From: a virus
Reading direction: 5' to 3' (one strand)
Virus record (IMG/VR): IMGVR_UViG_3300032285_004327
Coordinates: 1-43,141 of that record
Length of the DNA: 43,141 nucleotides
Below are positions 1 to 24,999 of the stretch, one piece after another; the first letter of the stretch is position 1; each line of letters begins with the position of its first letter. The notes below the pieces were generated by a model. It had not been told where the DNA came from. It saw only the letters and a list, made by a program, of their open reading frames with translations, and did no database searches. The position numbers and the translations under genes were made by a program.

Positions 1-558
1 ATCAACCGTTACCACATTATCACCATAGTAATCTGCAACTATTGTTGAATATGTACCAGGTATAACATCATTATAGAGTAAATATGTATTATTTGTTGGT
101 TCAATCGCTTGACCAATTTGAGTTTCAGTTCCCGCACTATAAAAACTATAAGGTGGGGTACCACCTGTAACAAATAAACTAACCGAACCTGTTGTTGACC
201 CGTCTAATGTCGGAAACACACTAACACACTCAGCATCAAATGGAAATATTGTTTTAATAGTACATTCATTCACCGTTGTAAAAATACCACTGTGTTGTTG
301 ACCAAAGTTGATTGTAATACCCGTAGGACAAGGATTTAATAAAATACAATTTGAACAAGATGTTTGTGCGGTCATACCAACTAAATCATAAACCAAAGGT
401 TCATAAAATAATTCAGGTAATTCAACATATGTCCCACATAAGGTGTCACCTTGTGTTGTTTCAATATAATAAATTTCATATTCTGAAACAGAACCAGGGA
501 TACCATTCACATAGAAATAGTCCTCAATATCACAACAATTTTGAAATCCAAAAGCCAT
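1..558 (-). CDS. SprB-like adhesin, 3' end cut off by the window edge
   Basis: The first 186 codons of a gene that runs off the left edge, so its C-terminus is missing. I translated it from the ATG at 558, which lies 46 bases after the stop of the preceding gene and 5 bases after a TATTTATA box. The N-terminal ~75 residues are cysteine-containing (CCDIEDY, SNCILLNPC) and not recognised. Residues ~120-175 (GSVSLFVTGGTPPYSFYSAG and onward) have the GG-T-P-P-Y core of a SprB-like immunoglobulin-type repeat, as in the adhesins encoded to the right. Known of the family: SprB repeats occur in large surface adhesins of gliding Bacteroidetes. Inference: another tail-tip adhesin or fibre component, last of the visible adhesin cassette. 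The reading frame is secure; the function is moderately so. Confidence 0.7.
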   Translation of the reverse strand, partial: MAFGFQNCCDIEDYFYVNGIPGSVSEYEIYYIETTQGDTLCGTYVELPELFYEPLVYDLVGMTAQTSCSNCILLNPCPTGITINFGQQHSGIFTTVNECTIKTIFPFDAECVSVFPTLDGSTTGSVSLFVTGGTPPYSFYSAGTETQIGQAIEPTNNTYLLYNDVIPGTYSTIVADYYGDNVVTVD

Positions 559-562
559 TACT

Positions 563-570
563 TATAAATA
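563..570 (-). promoter_or_regulatory. TATTTATA box, 5 nt before the edge adhesin start
   Basis: Coding-strand TATTTATA in the 46-base spacer between two adhesin genes. It is so close to the ATG at 558 that, if it were a -10 element, the transcript would be nearly leaderless or start inside the gene. A translational or processing signal is therefore equally possible here. Confidence 0.3.
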
Positions 571-604
571 ACAAAAAATCTGTTTTTATCTACACTTAAT
601 TTAT

Positions 605-826
605 TTAACATGAAAGTATTTGAGTTGTAGTACAAGAATTACCATCAACTACTTTACAAAACACGGTAGTTGAACCTGTAAGTGACACAGGTAAATTAAC
701 AATTACAGGCCAATAAACAGGGTCATACTGGGTTTGAACTAACGAACAATTGTTACCTGCAAAATCACATAAGTAAATTTGGAAAGGTGGTGTTCCATTA
801 ATGTTTGATATTTCAACGTAAGTCAT
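605..826 (-). CDS. Single-domain SprB-like protein, 73 aa
   Basis: A short protein that is essentially one SprB-like module. It has NGTPPFQIYLCD near the N-terminus, a beta-rich middle, and VDGNSCTTTQ near the end, where SprB repeats typically have a V-x-D-x-x-G-C strand. Its layout matches residues 1-75 of the 334-residue adhesin at 5367-6371 ([12 protein letters not shown] ... [11 protein letters not shown]), but it stops just where that protein begins its Thr/Pro stalk. The start ATG overlaps the TAA... no, it follows it in the order 660-residue fibre stop then this gene: the fibre's start at 826 shares one base with this gene's upstream boundary region only by adjacency, and coding order places this gene after the fibre. 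It could be a free-standing cap domain or the remnant of a longer stalked adhesin. The reading frame is conserved-looking and has no close-packed alternative. Confidence 0.6.
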   Translation of the reverse strand: MTYVEISNINGTPPFQIYLCDFAGNNCSLVQTQYDPVYWPVIVNLPVSLTGSTTVFCKVVDGNSCTTTQILSC

Positions 827-2808
827 TATCCTACTTTATTTTTAAGTTCTTTTATTTCTTCTTTGAGTTTCCCAATCTCTTCTAACAAATGTTTAATAAC
901 AACTCCGTGATAAGGAGTTACTTGGTCGTATCCCATTGTTAATTGGAAACCTTCGGGACTTGTAAATCCTTCATCATCAGTTGTCTCTTTTAAATCCTCA
1001 TTAGGGATGTGACTAATTAAATGATTAAATCCTGACTTAACAACTTGTTGTGCAGAATATCCAGTTTTAACACCCTCACTTTCTTTATCTTTCCAAGTAA
1101 ACTTAATTGGTTTTAGATTATTAACTAATTTAATTGCATCATCCAATTCAATTTCACCTTGAATGTTTTTCATCCTCTCATCAGATGTTGCATCAAACTC
1201 GGAAGCCTCAACACGTTGTTGAACATATAAACCAAAAGTACCTGTTGTGCCACCACCTGTTCCAGCACCACCTGTGTACAAAAATCCGTAGGTACCAATT
1301 GTATATGTTTTACCACCATAGATATTGGCGAATGCTCTAACTGTAGTTGACCCTGAACCCATAATAATTCCTGATGCCGCCCCTCCATTTAAAACAGGAC
1401 TTTGGTTACCTAAAATAATGGCTCCATTATTAGTATTAATCCACATAGAACCTCCATTACTTCTGGAATGGATGTGTGTGTTACCATCATCATAAATTGA
1501 TGTTCCGTTATTGTTAAAAGACAAATAATTTGTTCCGGGGTCATTATTAGATGTTACGGCAATATTACCACCGCCAACATATAAAATACCACCATCAGTT
1601 AAAGTTAATGTTTGAGCAAGATATGTACTATTGAGAAATTCAATACCACCCGTGATGTTAACACGAATAGTTTTGGTTGCGTTAGTGGCCCCCGCAGCAG
1701 TATTAACTACTCTAATAAAGTCAGTATATCCCGTACCACCCACAGTATTACTACCTGAGAAAGTAAGAAATGCCGTTGTAGAACTACCACTTGTAGTAAC
1801 AGTTCCTTTAGTACCTGAAATAGTATTAGAACTACCACTAAAAGATGGTGAATTAATTGACGTAGTTCCACATAAATTATTTGAGTAAAATGTACAGTTT
1901 GCTGAAGCGGTCACTCCAAAACCAACTGCCGATGAATATAAACCTGTTACAGTATTACCACTACCCCCTAAAATAGATGAATAATTACCTAACGCAGAAT
2001 TTGACCTTCCTCCCACTACGGTTGAAATAAACCCTCCTGCGTTATGACATAAACCTCCTCCAATAAATGTCGTATCACCACTTGCAACGTGACAATATCC
2101 ACCAACTATAGTAGCGTAGTTATTACTTGCAGTATTTTTAAATCCTCCACCAATAAAAGACCTAGTTCCACCTGCAATGTTTTTATATCCCCCACTTATA
2201 GTTGATGTATTACCACTTGCGATGTTATAGGAACCGCCCCCAATAAATGAAAACACCCCATTTGAGGTATTACAAAGTCCTCCTACAATTACCATATAAT
2301 CACCACATATTGAATTGGATGCTCCACCCCCGATAAAGCTAAGTCCATTCCCATAATATGCCGATAATGTTGAGTTAAGAAAACCACCCACAATAACGTC
2401 CCCCATACTTCCACCGTATCCTCCAGGAGTTGTTGTATTTTTACATCCTCCTCCAATAAATGATGCGGTAACACTAGCTGAGTTAAGAAAACCACCACCT
2501 ATAGTTGTGTAGTAAGAGCTTGCGGTGTTAGAAACCCCCCCTCCCACAAATGTTCTTCCTCCATTTGAATTATTACATATACCTCCACCTATTGTTGAAT
2601 AAGCTCCAACCGCATTATTTTTATAGCCACCACTAACTCCATTATAACCACCTCCAGCACAATTTAATTGTCCACCTCCAATAAATGAGTATGTCCCTGA
2701 ATTGGTATTTCCTGAACCTCCAGTTAATTTTCTAGCAGTTAATGTTGCACAAACATTGGAGTTTCCGCTGGTAATAAAACCATTTTTTATATTAAATTCA
2801 TTTGCCAT
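826..2808 (-). CDS. Tail fibre with YadA-head-like repeats and S74 self-cleaving chaperone
   Basis: A 660-residue fibre. Residues ~30-300 are a beta-roll of roughly 14-residue repeats of the type G-x-x-N-x-A-x-G-x-Y-S-x-I-G-G-G, like the head of trimeric autotransporter adhesins. A cap follows (ANCTFYSNNL), then a glycine-rich shaft. The last ~120 residues are an intramolecular chaperone of peptidase S74 type: S542-DERM-K547 gives the Ser/Lys pair at the same spacing as in phage endosialidase, and the end has YDQVTPYHGVVIKHLLEEI followed by a short Lys/Glu coiled coil. Known of the family: S74 domains trimerise fibres and then cut themselves off. Inference: a trimeric receptor-binding fibre. 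Its stop codon (TAA, 826-828) shares one base with the ATG of the 73-residue gene downstream. Confidence 0.88.
   Translation of the reverse strand: MANEFNIKNGFITSGNSNVCATLTARKLTGGSGNTNSGTYSFIGGGQLNCAGGGYNGVSGGYKNNAVGAYSTIGGGICNNSNGGRTFVGGGVSNTASSYYTTIGGGFLNSASVTASFIGGGCKNTTTPGGYGGSMGDVIVGGFLNSTLSAYYGNGLSFIGGGASNSICGDYMVIVGGLCNTSNGVFSFIGGGSYNIASGNTSTISGGYKNIAGGTRSFIGGGFKNTASNNYATIVGGYCHVASGDTTFIGGGLCHNAGGFISTVVGGRSNSALGNYSSILGGSGNTVTGLYSSAVGFGVTASANCTFYSNNLCGTTSINSPSFSGSSNTISGTKGTVTTSGSSTTAFLTFSGSNTVGGTGYTDFIRVVNTAAGATNATKTIRVNITGGIEFLNSTYLAQTLTLTDGGILYVGGGNIAVTSNNDPGTNYLSFNNNGTSIYDDGNTHIHSRSNGGSMWINTNNGAIILGNQSPVLNGGAASGIIMGSGSTTVRAFANIYGGKTYTIGTYGFLYTGGAGTGGGTTGTFGLYVQQRVEASEFDATSDERMKNIQGEIELDDAIKLVNNLKPIKFTWKDKESEGVKTGYSAQQVVKSGFNHLISHIPNEDLKETTDDEGFTSPEGFQLTMGYDQVTPYHGVVIKHLLEEIGKLKEEIKELKNKVG
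1905..2715 (-). repeat. YadA-head-like repeat block in the S74 fibre
   Basis: Degenerate in-frame repeats of about 42-70 bp encoding variants of NTASGxYSTIGGG. At DNA level, phrases such as ccaccaataaa and gttgatgta recur. The block closes with the TFYSNN cap. Such a block can change length by recombination with the related blocks in the neighbouring fibre gene. Confidence 0.8.
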
Positions 2809-2839
2809 AATTAAATCTTTTCCCTATCCAAGATTATTA

Positions 2840-2847
2840 TATAAATA
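2840..2847 (-). promoter_or_regulatory. TATTTATA box in the 56-nt spacer before the S74 fibre
   Basis: Coding-strand TATTTATA 31 bases upstream of the ATG at 2808. This distance would suit a -10 element with a leader of about 20 bases. The spacer is one of the longest in the structural region, which strengthens the case for a promoter here. Confidence 0.4.
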
Positions 2848-2864
2848 CAACAAGAGATTAAATA

Positions 2865-5357
2865 TTATAGTCCTCTGACTATTGATTTAACAACCCAAGT
2901 TCCCGTTGATGCCGAAGCTCGTAAAACCGCACTTGAGCCCGATATCACATACCCAAATGTTAATGCGGTGGTAACACCAATATCGTTTGTTGATGTTTCA
3001 GTGAAGTTAACGGATGTTCCACTCCATATTGCCACAATATTACCAGCTCTTAATCCCGTACCACCATATACGTTATAATCAACATATGAACTGGTATAAG
3101 CACTTGTAGGGAATGAATAAATTGTTGTTCCTGTTGATGCTGTAATTGGTGAAACAAATACAGTAGTATAAAGTGAAGGAGCTTGATTACTTCCAATTGT
3201 TAAAGTTGTTGCAGATATTGTTGTTGCAGTTAATGCTTGTAATGAAGTATTACCCGTAACCGTTAGATTACCGTTAATTGTTAAACCTGTTACACTTCCT
3301 CCACTAAATGAAGGTAAGTTGTTATATGTTGTCGCAGATATTGTACCTGTTATTATATTATTTGTATATAAAGTACAGTTAGCCGTTGCATTTAATCCAC
3401 AACCAATTGCTGAAGAAAAACTACCCGTTACAGTATTACCACTACCTCCGAGTATCATACCATTACTACCTGTAACAGTATTTCCAATACCTGTTCCAAT
3501 AAAACTATAAGAACCACCTGATGTAATAATATTTGACGCGCCACCCCCAATAAATGAACAGTTACCACCCGCAGTATTTTTACTACCACCAACAACTGAC
3601 GATGTTGTACCACTAGTAGTATTTTGAAGACCACCTCCAATAAATGTTGATGAACAACATGCAGTATTTAAACCTCCACCAACAACACTAGCAGAATATC
3701 CATACGATTTATTACCTACACCACCACCAACAAAAGAATAGGTACTATAAGTATTATTTAATGCTCCACCAACAACTACCGACGCCAATCCTGATGCGGT
3801 ATTACCTGTACCAGCCAACGATGCCGAAAAATCAGCAGTCGCGTTATTTGCAACCCCACATCTAATTGAAGATGTTGTACACGTTCCCTGAATAATAACG
3901 GAACTTACAGGTGTATAATTTGTTAATAACCCGTTAGTACCTGTGCAAACCGCTTGTCCTGATGACAACGTACTTGAATAGATTGACCCACAAGAACAAA
4001 AATTATTTGTATAAAATGTATTAGGACAAGACGCAACAATATTACATCCAAACACACCAATAAATGAATCGGACACAAAATTATTCATACCTCCAATTAT
4101 CACCGAATTAGACATTTTTGCAGTACCGGAAATAGAATTTAAACATCCGTTAAGGATTGAAGAAAACGATGGCCCAGTTGATGGGTAACTGGAAATAGTA
4201 TTTTGATTTCCCCCACCTATAAATGAATAATAACCCGATGATGTATTTGTACTTCCACCACCAATAAATGAATATGACCCACTTAAAGTATTACTATACC
4301 CTCCACTTATAGTTGATGTATAACCACTTACAATGTTACTGGCGCCACCCCCTACGGTTGAATTATCACTACTAGCAATGTTACCAACTCCCCCACCTAT
4401 AGTTGAGTAGCATCCAGTTGAGTTGTTTTTAAATCCTCCACCAACAGTTGAGTATTTACTACTTGAGGTATTACAATATCCTCCACTTACAGTTGTGTTA
4501 TAGTTACTTGATGTATTACAACGTCCACCACCTATGGTTGAATAAAATCCACTTGATGTATGAAAACCTCCTCCTCCAATTGTTGAAAAATAATTACTTG
4601 ATGTATTACCCCCACCCCCACCAACAAATGAATAATTACCTGACGAACTATTACCATACCCACCACCAATAAATGAATATTTACCCGAAGCGGTGTTATT
4701 ACATCCTCCCAATGACGCAGCGTAATTACCTGATGCAGTATTTGATACCCCACATCTAAGAGTTGAGTTAACACCTGCACCAACAATATATAAACTAGTG
4801 CCCGATGTTCCACCTGAACTTGACCCTGAAGAAAACTTTTTCCAAACTGCGGTTGAGTGGGTTGCCCCACCAACACCTTCGATTGTATTACCTGTCCAAG
4901 CGTTTATAAAATTCTGACCAGCCGCAGTTGTATTTTTTACTGTAGTCCCAAAATTTGATATTGTAACTGTATTAGTCGCAGCGGTTGCTGCATTCCAAAG
5001 AGTTTCATAATTATCAATTCTATATTGGTAAACTTGGTCAACATCATAAACATAAACTAACATACCAAGTCGTCTTCTACCTGAGGAAATGTTATCTGAG
5101 GCTAATGTTAAAACATCAGGAGACCAAACCGCTCCCGTTCCTTTTGTAAACTCAATAGGAATAGTATTTCCCGAATATTCAATACTCCCTGTAGTACCAT
5201 TAGGTATTGTATAATAAAGGTCAGATAAATTATAAACCTCCATATAACCACCAGTATTATTAACACTGAAAGTAGTACCATAAGTATTGTTTCTCGGGAC
5301 ACTCTGTGTTCCATTTACTTGGATTGACGATATTGGATTTTTATATAGAAAACTCAT
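2865..5357 (-). CDS. Tail fibre with two YadA-head-like repeat blocks
   Basis: An 830-residue protein. Residues 1-190 form a non-repetitive base that presumably attaches to the tail. Residues ~195-450 and ~500-665 are two separate YadA-head-like beta-roll blocks. Both open with a similar phrase (LRCGVSNTASG and IRCGVANNATA) and both close with a cap resembling TxYTNN. The remainder is a shaft (LTINGNLTVTGNTSLQALTATTIS) and a C-terminal domain of ~100 residues ending VVKSIVRGL, with no S74 motif. Inference: a trimeric fibre paralogous to the next gene, perhaps a longer partner. It starts 9 bases after the stop of the stalked adhesin gene, so it is probably co-transcribed with it. The fibre role is well supported; the attachment and receptor are not known. 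Confidence 0.82.
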   Translation of the reverse strand: MSFLYKNPISSIQVNGTQSVPRNNTYGTTFSVNNTGGYMEVYNLSDLYYTIPNGTTGSIEYSGNTIPIEFTKGTGAVWSPDVLTLASDNISSGRRRLGMLVYVYDVDQVYQYRIDNYETLWNAATAATNTVTISNFGTTVKNTTAAGQNFINAWTGNTIEGVGGATHSTAVWKKFSSGSSSGGTSGTSLYIVGAGVNSTLRCGVSNTASGNYAASLGGCNNTASGKYSFIGGGYGNSSSGNYSFVGGGGGNTSSNYFSTIGGGGFHTSSGFYSTIGGGRCNTSSNYNTTVSGGYCNTSSSKYSTVGGGFKNNSTGCYSTIGGGVGNIASSDNSTVGGGASNIVSGYTSTISGGYSNTLSGSYSFIGGGSTNTSSGYYSFIGGGNQNTISSYPSTGPSFSSILNGCLNSISGTAKMSNSVIIGGMNNFVSDSFIGVFGCNIVASCPNTFYTNNFCSCGSIYSSTLSSGQAVCTGTNGLLTNYTPVSSVIIQGTCTTSSIRCGVANNATADFSASLAGTGNTASGLASVVVGGALNNTYSTYSFVGGGVGNKSYGYSASVVGGGLNTACCSSTFIGGGLQNTTSGTTSSVVGGSKNTAGGNCSFIGGGASNIITSGGSYSFIGTGIGNTVTGSNGMILGGSGNTVTGSFSSAIGCGLNATANCTLYTNNIITGTISATTYNNLPSFSGGSVTGLTINGNLTVTGNTSLQALTATTISATTLTIGSNQAPSLYTTVFVSPITASTGTTIYSFPTSAYTSSYVDYNVYGGTGLRAGNIVAIWSGTSVNFTETSTNDIGVTTALTFGYVISGSSAVLRASASTGTWVVKSIVRGL
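3360..4770 (-). repeat. Two YadA-head-like repeat blocks in the 830-aa fibre
   Basis: Block one (about 4005-4770) and block two (about 3360-3865) each encode runs of xNTSSGxYSxIGGG-type beta-roll units and end in a TFYTNN or TLYTNN cap. A linker separates them. The layout looks like an internal duplication. Confidence 0.78.
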
Positions 5358-5366
5358 TTATTATAA

Positions 5367-6371
5367 TTATATATCAACCTTACTTCCTCTAAAATAAAGG
5401 TCGTAAGTATTATCCAATTCAAATGTATTTGATGGGTATGTCGTGTAAACTCTATATGTTGTTTTTGCAATTGTACTACCTGTATAAGTGAAAGTATTAG
5501 AATAAATTGTTGGTTCCATTTTAATACTTGTGAATACATTTGGATTTACAATTCCTAAATCAATTTCAACTTGGTATTGATTATTTGTTAAAATAGTAGG
5601 TATTATCCAAGTATACCAAGCCTTACATCCAACAGTATTTTCAGTCACTTTAACTGTTGGGAAATTATATCGAATATATGGATTACCATATGTGTCAAGT
5701 CCACCGCTTGTTCCTGGTACAATTTGTTTTATAATATTTGGGAACAATCCTGTAGTCCATCCTGAAAAATTAACGTACTTGTTCATATCAAAATCAAACG
5801 TACTTGCAGAACTACTTGGTTGAGTTGTATTTGTAAAACCATAAAAACTTGAACCAAGTGAATACATATATGAACCGATACTTGAAGAACCCGAATATGG
5901 TTCAATCAACAAATAAGCATAAATAGGAGTTTCAGGTGTCACAGTTGGAGTAGGGGTTCTTGTAACAGTTGGGGTAATTGTCTGAGTTGGAGTATGTGAC
6001 GGAGTAACTGTTTGTGTAGGTGTGATACTCGGTGTAATACTTGGTGTTGGGGTATGTGACGGGGTAATACTTGGTGTTGGGGTATGTGATGGTGTTAAAG
6101 AAATTGTAGGAGTAACACTTGGTGTAATACTTGGAGTCGGAGTCGGAGTAACACACATGTATTCTTGTGTGAAGACACATCCTGCTGAATCAACTATTTT
6201 AATTAAAACTTTTGGAGCCGATGAATATGGACTCGGAATATTAAAACTAACAGATGGTGGAATATAATCATATATCGTTGTCACAGTTTGACAAGAATAT
6301 TGAAATCTGTCACAAACTGAAACAACATAAGGAGGTGTTCCTCCCAAACTATCTATAGTTACTAAACTCAT
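5367..6371 (-). CDS. Stalked adhesin: SprB-like head, Thr/Pro stalk, C-terminal domain
   Basis: A 334-residue protein in three parts. Residues 1-75 are one SprB-like module ([23 protein letters not shown]). Residues ~76-145 are a low-complexity stalk of units such as [10 protein letters not shown]. Residues ~146-334 are a folded-looking aromatic-rich domain ([20 protein letters not shown]-like segments, ending [11 protein letters not shown]). Thr/Pro stalks of this sort act as extended, often glycosylated spacers in surface proteins. Inference: a tail-associated adhesin that holds the C-terminal domain away from the SprB-like head. Its leader carries a TATTTATC box inside a perfect inverted repeat. 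I do not recognise the C-terminal domain. Confidence 0.72.
5930..6155 (-). repeat. Thr/Pro stalk repeat
   Basis: Near-tandem repeats encoding variants of [10 protein letters not shown]. On the plus strand the phrase ggtgtaatacttggtgttgg recurs with small changes. Repeats of this kind are prone to slippage, so stalk length may vary between relatives. Confidence 0.8.
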
Positions 6372-6377
6372 TTAATG

Positions 6378-6399
6378 ATAAATAGTTTTTTAACTATTT
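6378..6399 (-). promoter_or_regulatory. Inverted repeat overlapping a TATTTATC box
   Basis: The 27-base spacer before the stalked adhesin contains AAATAGTT-AAAA-AACTATTT on the coding strand, an 8-bp perfect dyad with a four-base loop. Its right arm runs into TATTTATC, 6 bases before the ATG at 6371. No U-tract follows, so it is unlikely to be an intrinsic terminator. The all-A/T stem except one G/C pair makes chance possible. Confidence 0.35.
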
Positions 6400-8579
6400 T
6401 AAGTTCTACAAGATATAGAATATTGTATTCTTACAGTTATGGTTAAAACTTCATCTTTATAAACCTCAACACCACCAACAACATCAGATTCAATACTGAT
6501 TGTATTTGTCGCTAAATCAACAGTGTAAGTCTTAATATCGGGTATAGTATTAACTAACGCATCAATAACTGTCTTGAACACAGTTACTGTCGGTGAATTA
6601 GATAAAGATGTTGTTGTAAAGAAAGTACCTGAATAAACAGTTCCGGCAAGTTCTATATCACAATTAAATTTAGCGTATTTAAGTTTACAATCTTCATGTC
6701 CCGTTGTTAATGATGAATAACCTTCATTTAACATTTTTGTAAAATTAAATATAGCTGAAGGTAAATACGTTTTGGTACCAACAGTATATTTGTAAGTTGA
6801 GCTAGCAGTTTTTAACGGGTTACAAGTAATATCAATTGATTTTGTAGTTTCACAATTACTTGTACCACTCACAGTTAATACATAAGTACCAGCAGTTAAA
6901 CCTGTAATAAATGTACCACTTTGTCCATTAACGTTATCACTCCAAATAAAATTAAAAGGTCCTGTACTTTCATTTAATAAAACACTTATAGTTCCACCAC
7001 TACCATTAATACAATCAGTACCATATAATACGAATTGATAAGGTGATAAATAATCGACTGTGGTTGATTTTGTTTGTGAACATCCTGAAAGATTTTGTAC
7101 TGTTACATCGTAACCACCCGCAGGTAAGTTAGTAAACGTATATGTCGTTGAAGTTGTCGGATATGAACTAGCCCCATTTGATAGTGAATATGTATAAAAT
7201 GTTGAGGATGTATAACTTGGGTTTACTGATATATTAATCGACCCATCATTAAGACCACAATAAGTACTATTACCAGTTATTGAAAAATTAAATGAGGTGT
7301 CATTTGATACAGTTATATTGTTTGTGTAAGTACAAGCACTACTACTATCTTTAATAGTTAAAGTATAAACTCCTGACTCTAAACTGTTGAAAGTATTAGT
7401 TTGAAGTGTTGACGTATTTGTTGTTGTAACTCCACTATTATTACTCAATGAATAAATAAATGGAGATGTGCCTCCAAGTAATGTTACAGTTATTGACCCA
7501 CTATTGTATGAACATTGTGAATTTGTAACTGTTTCTGAAACCAATGAAAAACTTCTTGGTACCAAGAAATCAACTGATGTTGAAAAACTACATAATGAAA
7601 CATCTGTCACTGTAAGTGTGTAACTTCCTGACCCTATGTTATCAAATGTTGCGGATGTACTATAAGTTGTTACTGAGTCACCATTACTCAATAAGTAAAA
7701 ATATGGAGCAGTACCACCTGTAATATTAAAAGTAATACTCCCGTCCGAACTAAAACAAGTCGGTGGTGTAGTAGTATAAGAAATAAAAGATATTGGTTCA
7801 GCGTTTGTAATAGTTGTTGTTTTAGTTAAACTACAACCATTAGCATCTATCACAGTTAAACTATAAGACCCTTGAGTTAATCCTGTCACAAACGTATCCC
7901 CTGTACCACCGACAGTAGGTGACCACTCATATATAAATGGTGAAACTCCTGTAATTCCTGTAACATAAATTTTACCACTTTGTTGTGAACAAGACGGATT
8001 ATCAATAACATAAAATCCAAAATCTAAAGTATTTGGATTAGTATGTATTATAACTGATTCTGTTTCACAAGGACAATTACCATCACCTGTCACTTCAGCG
8101 TAATACATACCTTCTGATAAATTTAAAAAAGAATATGAAGTATTAACTGAAGTTGCCGAAGCATAAAATAAATAATTTTTATACAGATTAATTGTTGCTC
8201 CAACGAATGTTCCTAATGGATTTTCAATCACACCATTTGTTGTACCTGTTGTAATAACCGTTAAATAAGCACTGTCAGGTTGACAAGTTACAAAATCTGA
8301 AGTTTCAATATAAGCGGTACTCGCAGAAACAATATTAAAATATATTGGTCCAATAACCTCATTTGTTGGGAATGTTGAAGCGGTAATACTAAATCCGTAA
8401 GTTCCCGCAGATAAATTAGATACTGAATAACTACTTGTTGAAAAAGTTGCCGATGGTAATACATTATTTACCCATCCAATTGTATAAGGACTTGAACCAA
8501 CTAAACTAATAAGAGCAGCACCTGATGAGTTGTTTCTACAATCACCAGTTAATTTTATTGAATATAAAGTTTGAGCCAT
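6399..8579 (-). CDS. Multi-repeat SprB-like adhesin (seven modules)
   Basis: A 726-residue protein. I count seven tandem immunoglobulin-like modules of about 75-85 residues over residues 1-590. Typical features are a cysteine near the start of most modules (PPTCFSSDGSITFNITGGTA), a G-G-T-x-P-Y/F core, a L-x-x-G-x-Y-x-L-T-V strand and a C-terminal cysteine (DANGC). This matches the SprB repeat of Bacteroidetes gliding adhesins. The last ~135 residues form a different domain (VGTKTYLPSAIFNFTKML ... VRIQYSISCRT) that may attach to the tail or bind the receptor. No signal peptide is visible, as expected for a virion protein rather than a secreted host adhesin. Its ATG shares one base with the TAA of the 986-residue gene (TAATG), indicating translational coupling to baseplate genes. 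Confidence 0.82.
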   Translation of the reverse strand: MAQTLYSIKLTGDCRNNSSGAALISLVGSSPYTIGWVNNVLPSATFSTSSYSVSNLSAGTYGFSITASTFPTNEVIGPIYFNIVSASTAYIETSDFVTCQPDSAYLTVITTGTTNGVIENPLGTFVGATINLYKNYLFYASATSVNTSYSFLNLSEGMYYAEVTGDGNCPCETESVIIHTNPNTLDFGFYVIDNPSCSQQSGKIYVTGITGVSPFIYEWSPTVGGTGDTFVTGLTQGSYSLTVIDANGCSLTKTTTITNAEPISFISYTTTPPTCFSSDGSITFNITGGTAPYFYLLSNGDSVTTYSTSATFDNIGSGSYTLTVTDVSLCSFSTSVDFLVPRSFSLVSETVTNSQCSYNSGSITVTLLGGTSPFIYSLSNNSGVTTTNTSTLQTNTFNSLESGVYTLTIKDSSSACTYTNNITVSNDTSFNFSITGNSTYCGLNDGSINISVNPSYTSSTFYTYSLSNGASSYPTTSTTYTFTNLPAGGYDVTVQNLSGCSQTKSTTVDYLSPYQFVLYGTDCINGSGGTISVLLNESTGPFNFIWSDNVNGQSGTFITGLTAGTYVLTVSGTSNCETTKSIDITCNPLKTASSTYKYTVGTKTYLPSAIFNFTKMLNEGYSSLTTGHEDCKLKYAKFNCDIELAGTVYSGTFFTTTSLSNSPTVTVFKTVIDALVNTIPDIKTYTVDLATNTISIESDVVGGVEVYKDEVLTITVRIQYSISCRT

Positions 8580-12480: not shown

Positions 12481-13566
12481 TTATTGACTGTTTTGGATGT
12501 TGAAAAAATTATATCCGTAATTTACCAAATTTGACATCGTTGAAACTTCACCAATTCTTCTGAAGTTTTCCAATGCAGAATTTTTACCTCGTTCAACAAA
12601 AACACTTGAAAATAATTGAGGTTGGTCAATTACATTCATAAGAACCTCATTTTTTGTAATCGCACTTTGAACTAACATACTTGAAGTTAATCCCGAAGAC
12701 GCAACGACAAATATTGAAGTTCCACCTAAAAAGTCAATGTAATCTGTATTGTTTATAGTATATCCTGTTTGTTGTGATGTTAAATAATTTACCACACCGT
12801 ATCCTCCACCAGGTAAATTAACCGTCTGACCTACTTGATACTGAGTAGGGCCATACAGTGATAAATCCTCTAATCTTGAGGTTGTAACACCCGTTATAAA
12901 ATAAGGAACCTGACTATAGTAAGACCCTATTTGATACGCAATTTCATTATATGAATCCGCAGTATAAATAAAATTATAAGTTTGAGGACTAGCACTCCAA
13001 CTACCACTTGTATTTGCAAAAGTTACAGTACCTAATGGATTTGAATTATCTACAAGTGAATAGGGTACATTAATTGTTTTTGTTGTAGTAACAGTACCCC
13101 ACATGTTTTCTTGTTTTAATGTAATGGTATAACTTGTTGTATTGGCTAAAGGTCCCACATAAGTATGATTTATAAAGTCAGGATAAAATGAGTTTATAAT
13201 TTGTGAACTACCATCACCCCAATCTATAGTATATGTTGAATCAATTAAATAAACCGCACCCTCACTTGAGTTATTGAATAAACTGAAAGTGTAAGGATTT
13301 TCTGTAGATGAGGTAAATGAAAAATTTGCGGAAATAACTTGCTGAGTAATATTCCCATCAAACCCATCATAATAACCAATGTCTTGATATTTTTGTTTTA
13401 ATAAAATAGGAAACGTAAGACCTGTCAACAAAGATGTTCCACCTGAGTTACCCTGTAATAAACTTGTCAATCCAGTATATACTCCAAAAGTATACCCGCT
13501 AGATGTTACTTCTACAATATCTGATTGTAAAAATTCAGGAGATATTTTAATTCTAATTATTTCCAT
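12481..13566 (-). CDS. PKD-domain structural protein, 361 aa
   Basis: Residues ~80-170 form a PKD-like beta-sandwich. YTIDWGDGSSQ at residues 112-122 carries the W-G-D-G-S signature, HTY at 134-136 is the usual H-x-Y, and YTITLKQENMWGTVTTTKTI gives the final strands. The N-terminal ~80 residues and the C-terminal ~190 residues are not recognised; the latter end in a segment with several Phe/Asn (NLVNYGYNFFNIQNSQ). Known of the family: PKD domains are extracellular protein- or glycan-binding spacers, common in Bacteroidetes and in phage tail proteins. It begins 2 bases after the stop of the 251-residue gene. A decorating or adaptor role on the baseplate is inferred. Confidence 0.62.
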   Translation of the reverse strand: MEIIRIKISPEFLQSDIVEVTSSGYTFGVYTGLTSLLQGNSGGTSLLTGLTFPILLKQKYQDIGYYDGFDGNITQQVISANFSFTSSTENPYTFSLFNNSSEGAVYLIDSTYTIDWGDGSSQIINSFYPDFINHTYVGPLANTTSYTITLKQENMWGTVTTTKTINVPYSLVDNSNPLGTVTFANTSGSWSASPQTYNFIYTADSYNEIAYQIGSYYSQVPYFITGVTTSRLEDLSLYGPTQYQVGQTVNLPGGGYGVVNYLTSQQTGYTINNTDYIDFLGGTSIFVVASSGLTSSMLVQSAITKNEVLMNVIDQPQLFSSVFVERGKNSALENFRRIGEVSTMSNLVNYGYNFFNIQNSQ

Positions 13567-13568
13567 GT

Positions 13569-14324
13569 TTATACTGTAGGTGGATTTTTATACTCATACC
13601 AATTATTGGTTGAAAGTGGGGATTGTGAATTAATGTTATTTATGATATAAGTGTTTTGAGTGAAATTAAAATTCACTTCCCTCATGAAATAGTCAGTAGT
13701 TAAACGATAAGGTGTTGTTGATTCAGTTTGTTTTTTAGTTGTAAATGTTGTGAATGTACCGTTATTACCATCAAAAAATTTAACAGTCATATACAATTTT
13801 GTTAAATTTAATATCTGAGGATTTTCAAACCAATAAAGATAAAAACCTTCAGGGTTTGTCAATGGATTTAAACTATAAGAAGGTATTGATAATTTACCCG
13901 TACCTTGGTTATTACCTAAATCAACATTAACAGTATCATTTTTTTTATTTAAGATAACTGTTAAATAATTTTTTCTTCTTAAAGTATTTTGACTGTCATA
14001 AAAATCAATTTTGAAAAAAGATTTCATAAACCCATTACTTTTATTTAACACTTGAGTTTGAGTAAATCTTCCTGAATCAACGTAACTATTTACCCAATCA
14101 GTATCCCCACTATTTTTAAAATTAAAAACATACTTAAAAGGATATGGATACGAAAATCTTGCGGTTTCATAATTTTCAGGTTCACCAATTATTTCAGTAA
14201 TAATTTGTTCCTCATACAAATTAAGAGCGTCTTCCCTGTCCAAAAAGTCCCAATTCATATTGATTGGGATATTAATTCCCTTATCAATATTTGTTTTTAA
14301 TATTTTAAAATTATTCACAACCAT
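13569..14324 (-). CDS. Structural protein of unknown function, 251 aa
   Basis: Not recognised. The N-terminus VVNNFKILKTNIDKGINIPI resembles the start of the preceding 600-residue protein (NDNFQILKGTARYASAPDID), which suggests a shared attachment or assembly motif. The rest is beta-rich with many aromatic residues and no membrane segment. Its ATG lies 14 bases inside the end of the 600-residue gene, so the two are likely translated together. Position between gp6 and the adhesins suggests a peripheral baseplate component. Confidence 0.6.
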   Translation of the reverse strand: MVVNNFKILKTNIDKGINIPINMNWDFLDREDALNLYEEQIITEIIGEPENYETARFSYPYPFKYVFNFKNSGDTDWVNSYVDSGRFTQTQVLNKSNGFMKSFFKIDFYDSQNTLRRKNYLTVILNKKNDTVNVDLGNNQGTGKLSIPSYSLNPLTNPEGFYLYWFENPQILNLTKLYMTVKFFDGNNGTFTTFTTKKQTESTTPYRLTTDYFMREVNFNFTQNTYIINNINSQSPLSTNNWYEYKNPPTV

Positions 14325-16113
14325 CGGTAATTGGGTCGTTAACTTGTGTAGTGTTTATATTAGTTACATTACTTCCTTCAGGTATTAATCTGAAAATGAA
14401 GTTTTCATGTACATAATGTTTGTTATTCAAAAAAGGTCTATCAACTCCTCTTCCAATATCATCGATGAAACCATAAGGATATATATCTCTCCATCTAAAA
14501 TCATTATTATAACTTGAAAAGAAAGCGTATTTTGGTAAATTAACTAAAGGGAAATTTTGAGGATTATTTTCATCACTTTGTTCAACATAATCTGAAAAAA
14601 CCCTTATCTGAAACTTATAATGTGGTTTATAATAATAACCCTCAGTATTTTGATTTGATTCACCAATTGGTGATGTCTTAAAAACTTTTTGATTAAAATT
14701 TATTTTTTGGTAATACTCCGATAAAACAGTTTCGGTTTGTATCATGTCATTCCACTCACAAATATCCCCATCAAGAGTGTCACCTACATTATATGGTAAA
14801 TTATAATAAAATCTTAAAGTTGTACCACCAGGTGACGTTTTATCATAAAAATTAGTTTGGACATTTGTTAACGCCAAAGTATTTGTATCATTCCACCAAG
14901 GATTTAAATTTGGCCCAAGATTAAATTCCCATCCTTGTTTTAATCCAACACCATTAACTATTGGTTTATTAAAAAACCCAAAATATCCTCGATTAACAAT
15001 TGTTGTATAAAATTCAGTAACAGGTCGATTTAAATTATCTAAAAGATTATTAATATCAATATCATTTTTAAAAGATAAATTGTAACTTTGGGAACCTTCT
15101 TTAACCGAAATTCTTGGATTTAAATTTGGGGTTAAAGCTTTTGTTTCGTATTTTGTTTTAGTTCTAAATGGATTATTTTCAAAACCAGTTTTTGTTAATT
15201 CTGAATCATTGTAACTTGTAATTACTTTATGTCTTCTTACATAATATTTTGATTTTGATTCAGGATTATTCTTAGTTGTAATTCTTTTCATTAATCCAAT
15301 TGCACCATCGTAAAAATTACCACAATCAGTATATCCTAAATTATATATTGTGAATATTCTGTTTTGATTATTAGCATATGAATCACCTAAAGTATAAACG
15401 TCAAAGATATTATTAGTGTTACAAGAAATTGTTAATTCAACACTATCACCCTCACTCAAGTTATGATTAAACGGACAAGTAAATTGAATTACAGGTTTAC
15501 CATTTATAAAAGTATTACTAACAACAAATGGAATTCCATTCCCAACAATCCAATCAAAAGTATTACCATCATCTAATAAAATTTGTAATTGTTTGTTATA
15601 ATCGTTTTCAAAAGGATAAGTCAGATAAAAAAACCAATTATAAAACGGAGCCTGTAAAGTATTAAAATACACATGTGGGGTTTGATTGTTTTCACTTGTA
15701 GTATAACCCGGTACGTTATAGTCAGTTCTTATAAACTCAAACTCATGATATTGTGGTAAACCTGCCCAAGCAATTTCAAAACTAGGGTCAGGGTTACTGT
15801 TTTGTAAAATTCTATATGTTTCAGGATTTGTATAATATAAATTTCTATTAATTGGTGAGTATGGATTTGTAATTGGTTGAGTTAAACCCGAATAAGCGTT
15901 TTCAAAAAGAAGAGTAAATTTACAAGTGAAATTAAAAATTGTTGATTTTTGTCTTTCAGTGTCAAATCTTAAGGCTAAATCAATACCTAAATTTCTTTCG
16001 TACTCGGTAAGTTCCTTTAATGTACTATCTAATGTAACATTAATTTTAGTATCAATGTCAGGAGCACTCGCGTATCTTGCAGTACCTTTTAATATTTGGA
16101 AATTATCATTCAA
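14311..16113 (-). CDS. Structural protein of unknown function, 600 aa, TTG start
   Basis: Not recognised. The frame is bounded by a TAA immediately before the TTG at 16113, and the next in-frame ATG is far downstream (near residue 275, in GLMKRI), so TTG is the most likely start. The TTG lies 8 bases inside the end of the 1867-residue gene, which ends in TGA, an unusual stop here as the other genes I checked use TAA. The protein is beta-rich and Asn/Tyr/Phe-rich with scattered cysteines (FTCKF, FTCPF, ISCNT). The N-terminal NFQILK motif recurs in the next gene. No enzyme motif is visible. It is probably a baseplate or fibre-attachment protein by context. Confidence 0.6.
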   Translation of the reverse strand: MNDNFQILKGTARYASAPDIDTKINVTLDSTLKELTEYERNLGIDLALRFDTERQKSTIFNFTCKFTLLFENAYSGLTQPITNPYSPINRNLYYTNPETYRILQNSNPDPSFEIAWAGLPQYHEFEFIRTDYNVPGYTTSENNQTPHVYFNTLQAPFYNWFFYLTYPFENDYNKQLQILLDDGNTFDWIVGNGIPFVVSNTFINGKPVIQFTCPFNHNLSEGDSVELTISCNTNNIFDVYTLGDSYANNQNRIFTIYNLGYTDCGNFYDGAIGLMKRITTKNNPESKSKYYVRRHKVITSYNDSELTKTGFENNPFRTKTKYETKALTPNLNPRISVKEGSQSYNLSFKNDIDINNLLDNLNRPVTEFYTTIVNRGYFGFFNKPIVNGVGLKQGWEFNLGPNLNPWWNDTNTLALTNVQTNFYDKTSPGGTTLRFYYNLPYNVGDTLDGDICEWNDMIQTETVLSEYYQKINFNQKVFKTSPIGESNQNTEGYYYKPHYKFQIRVFSDYVEQSDENNPQNFPLVNLPKYAFFSSYNNDFRWRDIYPYGFIDDIGRGVDRPFLNNKHYVHENFIFRLIPEGSNVTNINTTQVNDPITDGCE

Positions 16114-19100
16114 TTACTTCTTCTGTATTTACGTATTTTATTAAAAATCTATCTAAAGCACTTCCACCTCTTTTTAAACCAAAATAGAAGTGATTTGGAG
16201 CACCTACTAAAAATTGAGGATTAAAGTTTTGAGTTGGAATTACGTCTGTTGGTACGTTATTTGAATCAAAGTTTATTAAAGTCCCTCTATAATTAGCAGC
16301 CAAGTTTCCATCCACTTGGAAGTATCTACTAGCATTATTAAATCTATCTAATTTCTGATACTTGTATTGGAAGAATGAATTATTAAACTCACCTGTTGAG
16401 TCAGGGTAGTTTGTTACCCAGTTGTTGTTTTGTGACCCGAAAATAGTTCCGTAATCAGCTGACCATCCATATTCATTAGTTATCCTATTTAGTTTCCACA
16501 AATAAAATGGCACCTCTTGTGTTTTAACGGGGATTTCGGTAAAGTTATATTCTTGTGGGGTATCAATAGTAGCTTGCGGATTCCATATAGTTCTTCTTGG
16601 TGAAATATAATCCCTATCTTGTGTGTTACCCGTTAATAATAAACCAAAGAATGGAAAATTGTTTTCATCTCCCAAAATCACAGGTTGATAAACAGAAGTT
16701 AAAGTTTGTGCATAATTTGAAACACTAAATGGTGAAATTCCAAATTCAGAATTTATTGATATCATTTGAGCGTAATCTGCGTCAACTAATGCAGGTACTG
16801 AACTACTATTGTTGTTTTCCCATCTTTTATTTGTAAAAAAACCTCTTACAGTTGGGTCGTTAGTACCTTCATTAATACCAGGTGTTGATGGTATTAAAAA
16901 TTGTAAAAAGTTAGGATTAACTAAACGGCTTAAAATAAATAAATTAAGAATTTCAGAAACATTATTATAACTTGTAGATTTAATTTTAGAAACAATATAA
17001 CCATCATAGTCATCATTATTTACTAACTCCTGAATGAAATAAGCTTTAGGACCTAAATCTAAAATTGTTGTAGGTGACTGTAAAAATTTATAATTTCCAA
17101 AATCAATAGTGTTACCAAAAGTTGTGTTATTCTTACCAATAAACCCATCGGTTACTGACCAAGGAGAACTTCTATAATAGAAATTATTACTTGTTTCATG
17201 GAAATATATTGTATCTTTACAGAAGATACTATACGGTCTATTATTAGACCCTGCAAATACTCTTTTATTGTTAAACGGATATGCGTATAAAGTACCATTT
17301 ATCCATTGATTTGAAAATGAATGGGAAAAAACATTAAAACACACAGCGTTATTTAACTTAACTCTTTGCGACCATTCAACAATTGACCTAATATCATCAG
17401 GAATAGTCACAATTAATTCTGAAATTAAATTATAACATCCAGTACCATAGTTAAAGAATTTTTTATTACTTGATGTCGGATTCATTAATTCCCTACAATC
17501 AGGTTTTATTGTTGGTACACCATTAACTAATTCATAACATTTTAACATTACCGCTTTTTCACAATCCGCAAGTGAATCAGCAACTTCAGCGTAAGGTAAA
17601 AATTGATTAGTGCTGTCATTAATTGAAAATGCTTGTTGTGTAACATTAGTTAATTCTGATTGTTCACCAGTATCATCATATTGAAAAATTGCAAATGTTG
17701 GATTTTGGTGCATTAAATAACTATTACCCCCATTGATAGATTCAGATGTTGATGTTGGTAATCTGTCAGTTCTAACAACAATTTTACTTTTATTTACTAT
17801 GTTAATGTTTGTAAAAATTGTATACCCATCAGTATTTGAATTTGCAAATGAGTTGGTACTGTTATATGATGGTGAAATAAAACCTTTGTTAGATAAATAA
17901 AACGCTCTACTACAAGGTTCATTAGGTATTGGATTATTTATATTACTACCACATGATTCACATAAATCATCATAAAGTCCACTAACTCCAAAATTTAAAA
18001 AATAAAATGATTGCCCTTCTAAGGTTGAGTAAGGTGAGTTATAGGGTGAATTATAATCAGAAAAATTCCATCGGTTAAATGTTATCACTGTTGTAGTAGG
18101 ACTTGGTATTGGGCAGTTTCCTTGTCCACTACCAGGACAATCATGACTAACATCAAAATAACCGCCCATAAAATTAATGTTCAAATTATTTCTAACATAA
18201 CCCGCCGAAAAATCTAAATATAATGGATTGTAATCATTTGTTGAAAATTGTGGAGGTATTTGACCGGCGGATGAACTTTCTCCAAATGTTGTTCTATCAA
18301 ATGATGAATAGTAATTCATCATGTCAGTTGTATATGGTAAAAATAAATTTTGTGAATATGAAAAAGCGTAGCTATCATAAAACACAGTACCACCATATTG
18401 GTCAGCGTCATTATTGGTGCCTAACTGATTATGTCTTACACAATGATAAGTAAAATATGGATTTGCCTGTAATGGTACATTTAATTTGTAATTACCTTCA
18501 ATATAAAATGAAGGATAATCTAAAATTTGATTTATTGTTGGTAAAGAACCATTTCCATTAACATATCCAACACCACCATAAGGTTGTATTTGGAAAAATG
18601 GTTCCATATATATTCTTTGTTTGACTCTAGGTGAGTGAACGTCAACACCTCTCATTAAAATAACAATTTGATAATCATCAATATTTGATATTAAATCACT
18701 AATTCCTTCAATATTTAAAGGATTATCAAATCTTCTAACTCTTTGTCTATAACAACTAAATGATTCATTCATAGTTGCCCATTCGTAATGAGTCATGTTA
18801 TAATTCCAAAAATCTATAAATTTCGGAGCGGTACCCGATGGGAGTACGTCTGATGCAATTTGCTTATATTCCCCAATAGTCCATCCTGTAATTACTTGGA
18901 AATACTCAACATCTGATGCAAATCCTGTAGTTTTTGGTGATTGAGTAAAGCCAGTCAAGTTATAAACTGTTGCTACAGGCCCAGCAGTTTCAGGATTTGT
19001 CCATCGTACATTTACATGGGATAAATTAATTGTTGTACCAGTGGCATATACTTGTCTTTGTTCTGAAAAATAATTTGGGTCAGTAGACATATCTTTATCT

Positions 19101-24161: not shown

Positions 24162-24929
24162 TTACAAACCCATATCGTCAATGAATTTTTTGTGGGATTT
24201 TTTGTAAGAAGATTTGCTTTCGTCATAAACATCAGTAGTATACTGCCAATTCCAATATAGTTTCTTATTAGGTTCAAATCCATAGAACTCATGAACTTTC
24301 ATTTGAGTTTTAGTTACATCCTCACCATTCCAGTTTTGACCAACACAAATAAATCCTGTTTCAATACCTTCAACTATATTTTTTTCACCTAAAGTATTGT
24401 GTCTATTTTCAATCCAAGTTAATCTTTCAATTAAATTTTGATAGAACATATTTGCCTGTCCCCATCTTACAGAACTAAAAAATACCACAGCATCAGCTTC
24501 AAAAAGTTCCTTAGATATTTTCCAAAGTTCATCAGTTTTATTATTTAAACTAGCCCAACATCTATGATACCCTGAAGGATTTTTCTTATCATCTTTAAGT
24601 AATGCTTTTAAAAGTCCACAACTGTTACCATCCTCTCTTGACACATTTCCTTCACAAGGAAATATCTTTAACTCTGAAACATCAATGAATACTGACTTAT
24701 CACCAAGCACCTCATTTAAGTACATTGCTAATATTTTTGATTTAGGAACATCAATATTTTTGGGGTCCCAATTATGTCTATTTGAACAACTTAATAATAA
24801 AACTTTCTTTTTCTTTTTTAAGATGTCTAAAGTTTGTTTTAACTTTTTTTCACCTCCCTCTTGAACCATGTTCTCCGAGAGCATCATTTTTCTTATTTTT
24901 TCAATTTCTTCTTGTATGATATTAGACAT
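24162..24929 (-). CDS. NAD(P)H-dependent FMN reductase-like flavoprotein
   Basis: A 255-residue protein if started at the ATG at 24929. The longer version from 24983 would begin inside the nrdA terminator, so I reject it. Residues ~40-70 start a flavodoxin-like fold (KKKKVLLLSCSNRHNWDP, where family members have a phosphate-binding loop). The later segment EADAVVFFSSVRWGQANMFY with NLIERLTW matches the A-D-A-x-x-x-x-S-P-V-x-W-G signature of NADPH-dependent FMN reductases, here with S-V-R-W-G. A helical N-terminal extension of ~35 residues precedes the fold. Several cysteines (PCEG, SCGLL, HRCW) could be redox-active. Inference: an auxiliary electron-transfer flavoprotein, perhaps serving the adjacent ribonucleotide reductase. 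It is flanked by terminators on both sides and has a TATTTAT box 4 bases before the start, so it may be expressed on its own. Confidence 0.72.
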   Translation of the reverse strand: MSNIIQEEIEKIRKMMLSENMVQEGGEKKLKQTLDILKKKKKVLLLSCSNRHNWDPKNIDVPKSKILAMYLNEVLGDKSVFIDVSELKIFPCEGNVSREDGNSCGLLKALLKDDKKNPSGYHRCWASLNNKTDELWKISKELFEADAVVFFSSVRWGQANMFYQNLIERLTWIENRHNTLGEKNIVEGIETGFICVGQNWNGEDVTKTQMKVHEFYGFEPNKKLYWNWQYTTDVYDESKSSYKKSHKKFIDDMGL

Positions 24930-24933
24930 AATA

Positions 24934-24940
24934 ATAAATA
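24934..24940 (-). promoter_or_regulatory. TATTTAT box before the flavin reductase
   Basis: Coding-strand GTATTTATTATT directly ahead of the ATG at 24929, downstream of the nrdA terminator. This again places the box between a terminator and an isolated gene. Confidence 0.38.
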
Positions 24941-24952
24941 CATCTTTAAATG

Positions 24953-24976
24953 AAAAATCCCGACCTAGCTCGGGAT
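24953..24976 (-). terminator. Intrinsic terminator after nrdA
   Basis: Coding-strand ATCCCGA-GCTAGG-TCGGGAT followed by TTTT: a 7-bp stem with five G/C-containing base pairs, six-base loop and U-tract, 24 bases beyond the nrdA stop codon. Confidence 0.82.
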
Positions 24977-24999
24977 AACACATCGGATATTGTTAGTTA

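What the first reader, a model, noticed from the sequence alone, without database searches (positions are those of the whole stretch)
1..8579. A phage adhesin kit built from SprB-like domains
Four separate genes carry the same immunoglobulin-type module with a GGTPPY-like core: seven copies in the 726-residue protein, one on a Thr/Pro stalk, one as a free 73-residue protein and one at the left edge. SprB repeats are known from the motility adhesin of gliding Bacteroidetes. A phage using several formats of this domain suggests mimicry of, or docking to, host surface adhesins, or a modular receptor-binding set exchanged by recombination.
Basis: partly seen in the sequence, partly recalled or inferred. 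Interest (0 to 1): 0.7.

Follow-up and report, generated by a model that had tools for sequence, protein, structure and literature searches.

The report
Phage tail proteins with immunoglobulin modules
A group of large uncultured phages carries a fixed set of immunoglobulin-like proteins beside its tail genes: an unvarying seven-domain rod, and a small module that always sits at the front of a protein; both look like parts that hold the exchangeable tail fibres rather than copies of a host motility adhesin.

Summary
p726 (6399-8579) has seven SprB-type Ig modules (Pfam PF13573, E 9e-15), and the left-edge protein has one. p73 and the front of p334 carry a different six-stranded beta-sandwich module that matches no Pfam or PHROG family.

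Across about 310 viral loci three regularities appear. (1) All 88 complete phage proteins of the p726 type have exactly seven modules (43 clusters at 70% identity). (2) The small module is at the N-terminus of 212 of 212 distinct proteins, one per protein, with never more than three copies per genome and exactly three in 13 of 18 records over 100 kb. (3) Its gene lies within 2.6 kb of the seven-module gene in 87 of 87 cases, and usually touches it. What is exchanged is the neighbouring fibre p830: 38 of 62 fibre pairs with near-identical N-termini have unrelated bodies.

I read p726 as a fixed baseplate rod, the small module as a virion-docking domain, and p830 as the variable receptor binder. 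Mimicry of, or docking to, host SprB is not supported. Virion location and function are inferred. Relatives encode one PF11397 GlcNAc-transferase each, which may glycosylate the Thr/Pro stalks.

The parts
6399..8579 (-). p726: chain of seven SprB-type Ig modules plus C-terminal alpha/beta domain; proposed fixed rod of the baseplate/tail appendage
   Evidence: Pfam PF13573 E 9.1e-15; seven HMM matches; AF2 model with repeated beta-sandwiches, mean pLDDT 68; 88 of 88 phage homologues have 7 modules
6822..8549 (-). seven SprB-type modules of p726: 8358-8549, 8046-8243, 7803-8012, 7572-7778, 7302-7532, 7053-7277, 6822-7028
   Evidence: profile matches at residues 11-74, 113-178, 190-259, 268-336, 350-426, 435-509, 518-586
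6402..6812 (-). C-terminal domain of p726 (residues 590-726), no match to the modules
   Evidence: hhalign to the modules below about 1%; helices and strands in model; conserved in relatives
5367..6371 (-). p334: N-terminal module, Thr/Pro stalk, C-terminal domain; proposed adaptor between rod and fibre
   Evidence: ORF; homologues in all close relatives, between p726 and fibre
6153..6371 (-). N-terminal module (N-module) of p334, residues 1-73
   Evidence: HMM family
5925..6152 (-). Thr/Pro-rich stalk of p334, residues 74-149
   Evidence: sequence
5370..5924 (-). C-terminal domain of p334, residues 150-334; 81-85% identical in relatives whose baseplate proteins are 53-67% identical
   Evidence: L030, L031, L035, L064
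2865..5357 (-). p830: tail fibre with conserved N-terminus (4833-5357) and exchangeable body (2868-4832; here YadA-like beta-roll repeats)
   Evidence: N-terminal 175 aa conserved, bodies replaced
826..2808 (-). p660: beta-roll repeat fibre with C-terminal Peptidase_S74 intramolecular chaperone; overlaps p73 start by 1 base
   Evidence: PF13884 E 3.8e-7, PHROG tail fiber protein E 7.7e-6
605..826 (-). p73: free N-module, predicted six-stranded beta-sandwich
   Evidence: AF2 mean pLDDT 89, pTM 0.74 with a 52-sequence alignment
1..558 (-). p186: 5' part of a large protein (676-694 aa in relatives); N-terminal Cys-rich 'CC' domain 325-558, SprB-type module 10-222; cut by the window edge
   Evidence: 52.7% identical to the 679-aa L030 protein; 676-aa relative in L093; CC HMM 94.7 bits; SprB-like module 32.4 bits

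Best explanation
This is the tail-appendage cassette of a clade of large T4-like phages, probably of Bacteroidota. Shown: p726 is a chain of exactly seven SprB-type Ig modules, inherited with the baseplate genes; p73 and the front of p334 are one family of single-domain Ig-like modules that is always N-terminal, occurs once per protein, at most three times per genome, and lies in genes beside the rod gene or beside long stalk/Cys-rich proteins; the downstream fibre p830 keeps its N-terminus and swaps its body. Inferred: p726 is a rod of fixed length on the baseplate; the N-module is a docking domain that fixes each bearer (p334, p73 and a third protein outside the window) to a common kind of virion site; p334 is the adaptor whose stalk and C-domain hold fibre p830; the distal part of p830 (and p660) recognises the host and is exchanged when host range shifts. 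The Thr/Pro stalks may be O-GlcNAc-modified by a phage PF11397 transferase found in the large relatives.
For: Operon order gp25-gp6-...-p986-p726-p334-p830. Seven modules in 88/88 complete phage homologues, 43 clusters at 70% identity. N-module at residue <=15 in 209/212 distinct proteins, and the three exceptions have a Met directly before the module; none with two modules. Rod gene followed by an N-module gene: 81/87 within about 0.7 kb, the other six after one inserted gene at 2.2-2.6 kb. At most three copies per record; exactly three in 13 of 18 records >100 kb, the other five with a match within about 6 kb of a contig end. Free N-modules adjoin CC-domain genes, 21 of 75 distinct modules. 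Fibre pairs with N-terminus >=80% identical: 38 of 62 have no body similarity. p726 identity follows p986 (rho 0.85), fibre N-terminus less (0.58; 0.10 against p301).
Against: No proteomics or structure places any of these proteins in the virion. The p726 model is only of moderate confidence (pLDDT 68) and the order of domains in space is unknown. N-terminal position fits docking but also a signal or chaperone role. Only 41 of 61 fibre N-termini directly follow an N-module gene. The PF11397 enzyme is not in the window.
Confidence: 0.55

Rival explanations
1. The Ig-like proteins are themselves adhesins: SprB-type modules bind host-surface or environmental glycans and bring the phage to its host, as proposed for Hoc and BACON/PKD proteins.
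For: SprB family named after an adhesin; PDB neighbours of the p726 model are the Aureispira grappling-hook protein GhpA (E 6e-19); Ig-like phage proteins gave epithelial binding in PMC13370021; LamG-like lectin genes lie next to the fibres in relatives.
Against: Module number never changes, and p726 evolves with baseplate genes rather than with the exchangeable fibre. Foldseek hits to GhpA reflect strings of Ig domains (TM <=0.28).
Confidence: 0.2
2. The small N-module proteins are assembly chaperones or caps for the long protein encoded next to them, not permanent virion parts.
For: Small free ORFs (128 of 204 complete distinct proteins <=110 aa) adjoin long stalk or fibre genes within a few bases, as fibre chaperones often do.
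Against: In 76 complete proteins the module is the front of a longer protein, and 62 of the 81 distinct proteins over 110 aa carry a Thr/Pro stalk, which suits a displayed structure.
Confidence: 0.15
3. One reading: mimicry of, or docking to, host SprB motility adhesin.
For: Sequence family shared with Bacteroidota surface proteins (L157).
Against: No T9SS sorting domain above cut-off, no evident signal peptide, fixed module number, no close host copy found (43% best, one locus; the patterns used were narrow).
Confidence: 0.05
4. p726 and p334 decorate the capsid (Hoc-like).
For: Weak PHROG match 'Hoc-like head decoration' E 0.003 for p726.
Against: Gene position downstream of baseplate genes and upstream of fibres; head genes are not in the window.
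Confidence: 0.05

Closest known systems
SprB repeat, Pfam PF13573 (F. johnsoniae SprB and other Bacteroidota surface proteins)
   Same: Same repeat family in p726 (above curated cut-off), GGTxPY and V.D..GC motifs, tandem Ig-like chain
   Different: Seven modules fixed, phage baseplate locus, no secretion signals; SprB is a 6497-aa host surface adhesin (PMC9870892)
GhpA grappling hook of Aureispira (PDB 9flp, 9flw, 9fly)
   Same: Best structural neighbours of the p726 model: long strings of Ig-like domains from a Bacteroidota surface rod
   Different: Much longer; 16-20% identity in structure alignment; no sequence-profile hit
Ig-like domains of phage virion proteins (Hoc; BACON/PKD proteins of crAss-like and Flandersviridae-like phages, PMC13370021, PMC6949934)
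   Same: Ig-like modules on phage proteins linked to adhesion; Bacteroidota-associated phages
   Different: PMC13370021 names BACON, PKD, Big-2 and unspecified Ig-like types and does not mention SprB; no fixed seven-module rod or N-module is described in the passages I read
Modular tail fibres/tailspikes with conserved N-terminal anchor and swapped C-terminus (e.g. PMC10408124)
   Same: p830: conserved 175-aa N-terminus, replaced bodies and tips
   Different: Here the anchor region lies behind an Ig rod and a Thr/Pro-stalk adaptor
Flavobacterium phage vB_FspM_immuto (Immutovirus)
   Same: Nearest cultured relative found: UvsX 42%, gp6 26%, and gp162 weakly like p986
   Different: No N-module, seven-module rod, CC domain or p830 N-terminus in the 150 kb of its 160-kb genome that was scanned

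Membership tests
SprB repeat family PF13573 | score above Pfam gathering cut-off (28 bits) | tested here: met
   p726: 54.5 bits, E 9.1e-15; p975 and p537 of L139 also above cut-off
SprB repeat family PF13573 | same, for p73 and p334 N-module | tested here: not met
   no hit for p73 or p334; 0 of 52 family members at E<=0.01
SprB repeat family PF13573 | same, for p186 module | tested here: inconclusive
   20.2 bits, below cut-off; clear with clade profile
SprB motility adhesin | T9SS C-terminal sorting domain | tested here: not met
   PF18962 only 16.7 bits (cut-off 27), at residues 383-415 inside the repeats
SprB motility adhesin | very large secreted cell-surface protein encoded by the host | tested here: not met
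   726 aa, phage contig, no hydrophobic N-terminal signal by reading
SprB motility adhesin | function in gliding or surface adhesion | not testable with these tools
   needs experiment
Hoc-like head decoration | Hoc profile match and capsid-gene context | tested here: inconclusive
   PHROG 2973 E 0.0032, context is baseplate/fibre
T4-like baseplate/fibre cluster | gp25 and gp6 wedge genes upstream on the same strand | tested here: met
   PHROG 261 E 9e-20 and 219 E 1e-18
modular tail fibre | conserved N-terminus with replaced distal body among relatives | tested here: met
   38 of 62 pairs for p830
virion protein | presence in purified particles | not testable with these tools
   no proteomics at hand

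The most novel reading that the evidence does not exclude
The N-module is an SprB-type Ig fold that lacks its first strand (six predicted strands against about seven per p726 module) and docks by strand complementation onto Ig rods, so that three different N-module proteins assemble three kinds of mucin-like, phage-glycosylated (PF11397) appendage on one virion: an unrecognised docking system for exchangeable fibres, conserved across a wide clade of uncultured jumbo phages.
Probability: 0.12. Interest if true: 0.75.

Novelty: new variant of a known kind. Interest (0 to 1): 0.5.

Why it matters
Ig-like domains on phages are usually read as adhesins. Here a large comparative set shows a seven-module chain that never changes its module number, and a module family confined to N-termini, both tied to the tail-gene neighbourhood, while the fibre next door is the part that is swapped. 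If docking is right, this gives an unrecognised attachment system for phage fibres, a marker family (the N-module, absent from Pfam and PHROGs) for a widespread group of uncultured large phages, and a testable link between Thr/Pro stalks and a phage-encoded polypeptide GlcNAc-transferase.

Tried and rejected
Phage-record tblastn with p334, p73, p186, p986 and a divergent N-module found nothing; p726 matched only the 642-kb uncultured LR756502. Sequence profiles of p726 and of the N-module gave no credible PDB relative; the CTCF hits rest on 15 columns. Foldseek of p73 against the PDB gave only generic Ig-like folds with E>=0.1; the RemZ/T9SS complex hits (8gl8, 8gl6) are not significant and were not used. 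A genome-contig scan for the N-module found no bacterial relative; the scan with p726 module 3 found one Bacteroidota surface protein, 43%, but its patterns were phage-specific, so it does not measure host similarity in general. A first profile link between N-module and SprB modules (84-88%) was discarded because N-modules had entered the profile; the clean value is 62-70%. One search used a wrong family accession and is uninformative. Two alignments were too diverse for a collection scan, and one alignment call had wrong coordinates.
Full report
What the window is. The window is a 43-kb linear virus record. Its minus-strand genes include a UvsX-like recombinase, DnaB-like helicase, ssDNA-binding protein, ribonucleotide reductase, and the baseplate wedge proteins gp25 and gp6. 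The nearest cultured phage by UvsX is Flavobacterium phage immuto (42%); gp6 also matches an uncultured 484-kb phage and a Microcystis phage at 27%. A Bacteroidota host is therefore likely but not shown. Near relatives occur on contigs of up to 242 kb, so this is a fragment of a large phage.

Check of the observation. The four ORFs are real. Downstream of gp25 and gp6 the order is p1867, p600, p251, p361, p301, p986, p726, p334, p830, p660, p73, p186. p726 has seven SprB-type modules; p186 has one, behind a Cys-rich N-terminal domain, and its complete relatives have 676-694 aa with two or three such modules. p73 and p334-N are a separate family.

The N-module. An HMM of p73/p334-N, run over all ORFs of about 310 loci, found 445 ORFs or 212 distinct proteins. 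The module starts at residue 15 or earlier in 209; in the other three, a Met directly before the module shows that the ORF start was called too early. No protein has two. Because the HMM was run on whole ORFs, internal copies would have been seen. Complete proteins are free modules (128 of 204 are at most 110 aa) or longer proteins; 62 of the 81 distinct proteins over 110 aa carry a Thr/Pro stalk. Eighteen records over 100 kb hold one to three copies, exactly three in 13; the five with fewer have a match within about 6 kb of a contig end, so truncation is likely. AlphaFold2 gives a confident six-stranded beta-sandwich (pLDDT 89). Among predicted viral proteins only three match at E<=0.001, all from uncultured Caudovirales, of 92, 334 and 73 aa: the same three formats. 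No Pfam or PHROG family covers the module, and no bacterial genome showed a relative under the patterns scanned.

The seven-module rod. With a clean profile, every complete phage protein of the p726 type (at least four modules) has seven modules: 88 of 88, in 43 clusters at 70% identity, with total lengths from 606 to more than 1,100 aa. The single other multi-module protein, in the 642-kb phage LR756502, has 14 and is a distant relative by repeats only. Repeat arrays that serve as adhesins would be expected to gain and lose units (inference). A constant number points to a structural constraint such as rod length. An N-module gene follows the rod gene in 81 of 87 cases, mostly within 30 bases; in the other six a gene of about 750 aa is inserted first. 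The p726 model (pLDDT 68) shows a string of beta-sandwiches and a C-terminal alpha/beta domain. Its best structural neighbours are fragments of GhpA, the grappling hook of the Bacteroidota bacterium Aureispira, which shows fold type, not function.

What is exchanged. Close relatives (p986 91-92% identical) keep the first 175 residues of p830 (82%), but the body shows only 22-25% identity and is collagen-like instead of a beta-roll; conversely L031, with baseplate proteins at 53-67%, keeps the beta-roll body at 79%. Over 25 complete fibres, 38 of 62 pairs with N-termini at least 80% identical have no detectable body similarity, and there are nine tip clusters. Pairwise identity of p726 follows p986 (rho 0.85) more than that of p830-N does (0.58); p830-N shows 0.10 against p301. 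At p986 identity 60-70%, p830-N has a median of 94% (81-99). Exchange therefore sits in the fibre, and p334's C-domain tends to go with it (81-85% in L030, L031, L035 and L064, where its own N-module is 67-70%).

Mechanism. I propose: rod p726 on the baseplate; N-module of p334 docks on the virion side; stalk and C-domain hold fibre p830; p73 and a third N-module protein do the same for the long CC-domain proteins encoded beside them (21 of 75 distinct modules adjoin a CC gene; in L093, p73 precedes the 676-aa protein, and the third module precedes an 818-aa CC, Thr/Pro and beta-propeller protein). Gene order, N-terminal position, copy numbers and exchange pattern are shown; docking, virion location and receptor binding are inferred.

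A further lead. Twelve of twelve relatives over 100 kb encode one protein of Pfam PF11397 (GlcNAc glycosyltransferase, E about 1e-60), absent from the window. It lies within 600 bases downstream of an N-module gene in 45 of 152 cases (these are locus counts, not independent genomes). PF11397 is, from my own knowledge, the Skp1 GlcNAc-transferase family; that enzyme and the Trypanosoma cruzi transferase that puts alpha-GlcNAc on Thr of mucins belong to CAZy GT60 (PMC6939170, PMC3769586). The Thr/Pro stalks are a natural candidate substrate. This is a hypothesis.

Limits. Most sequences are uncultured freshwater contigs, many near-duplicates; I therefore give distinct proteins or 70% clusters. 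None of the records is known to be closed. Host, virion composition and binding are untested. The interest lies in the regularities; the idea of Ig-like virion proteins and swapped fibres is known.

Noticed in passing
relatives: G001:C1:90093-90962, L007:20018-21262, L139:8968-10218: One PF11397 GlcNAc glycosyltransferase per large relative (12 of 12 over 100 kb), often just downstream of an N-module/Thr-Pro stalk gene; none in the window. Possible O-GlcNAc modification of phage stalks.
   Followed up: partly
window 325-558; L093:13194-15650; L139:11065-12690: A second recurrent N-terminal domain (Cys-rich, 'CC...C..C..NPC', about 77 aa), sometimes present again inside the same protein, adjoining N-module genes; no Pfam name in the proteins tested.
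   Followed up: partly
L093:13194-15650: 818-aa protein with CC domain, Thr/Pro stalk and a lactonase-type beta-propeller (PF10282 E 3e-15), next to the third N-module gene.
   Followed up: no
window 826-2808 and 2865-5357: Two fibre genes with YadA-like 'GGG..NTASG' beta-roll repeats, one with a Peptidase_S74 chaperone; relatives replace this with long 'SSGTSG' collagen-like repeats, over 1,500 residues in L093.
   Followed up: partly
L012:17259-18510, L031:15534-17661: Tandem LamG-like lectin genes (PF13385 in L012) directly after the fibre in some relatives, replaced by other genes in others.
   Followed up: no
window 24162-24983: 273-aa protein between gp25 and the ribonucleotide reductase gene; no Pfam or PHROG match.
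   Followed up: no
L015:10001-12102: The p726 homologue is split by a frame change in this contig (606 + 82 aa); could be an assembly error.
   Followed up: no
L042 (LR756502) 13192-18204: A 642-kb uncultured phage encodes a 1670-aa protein with at least 14 SprB-type modules, without N-module genes in the 31 kb read.
   Followed up: partly
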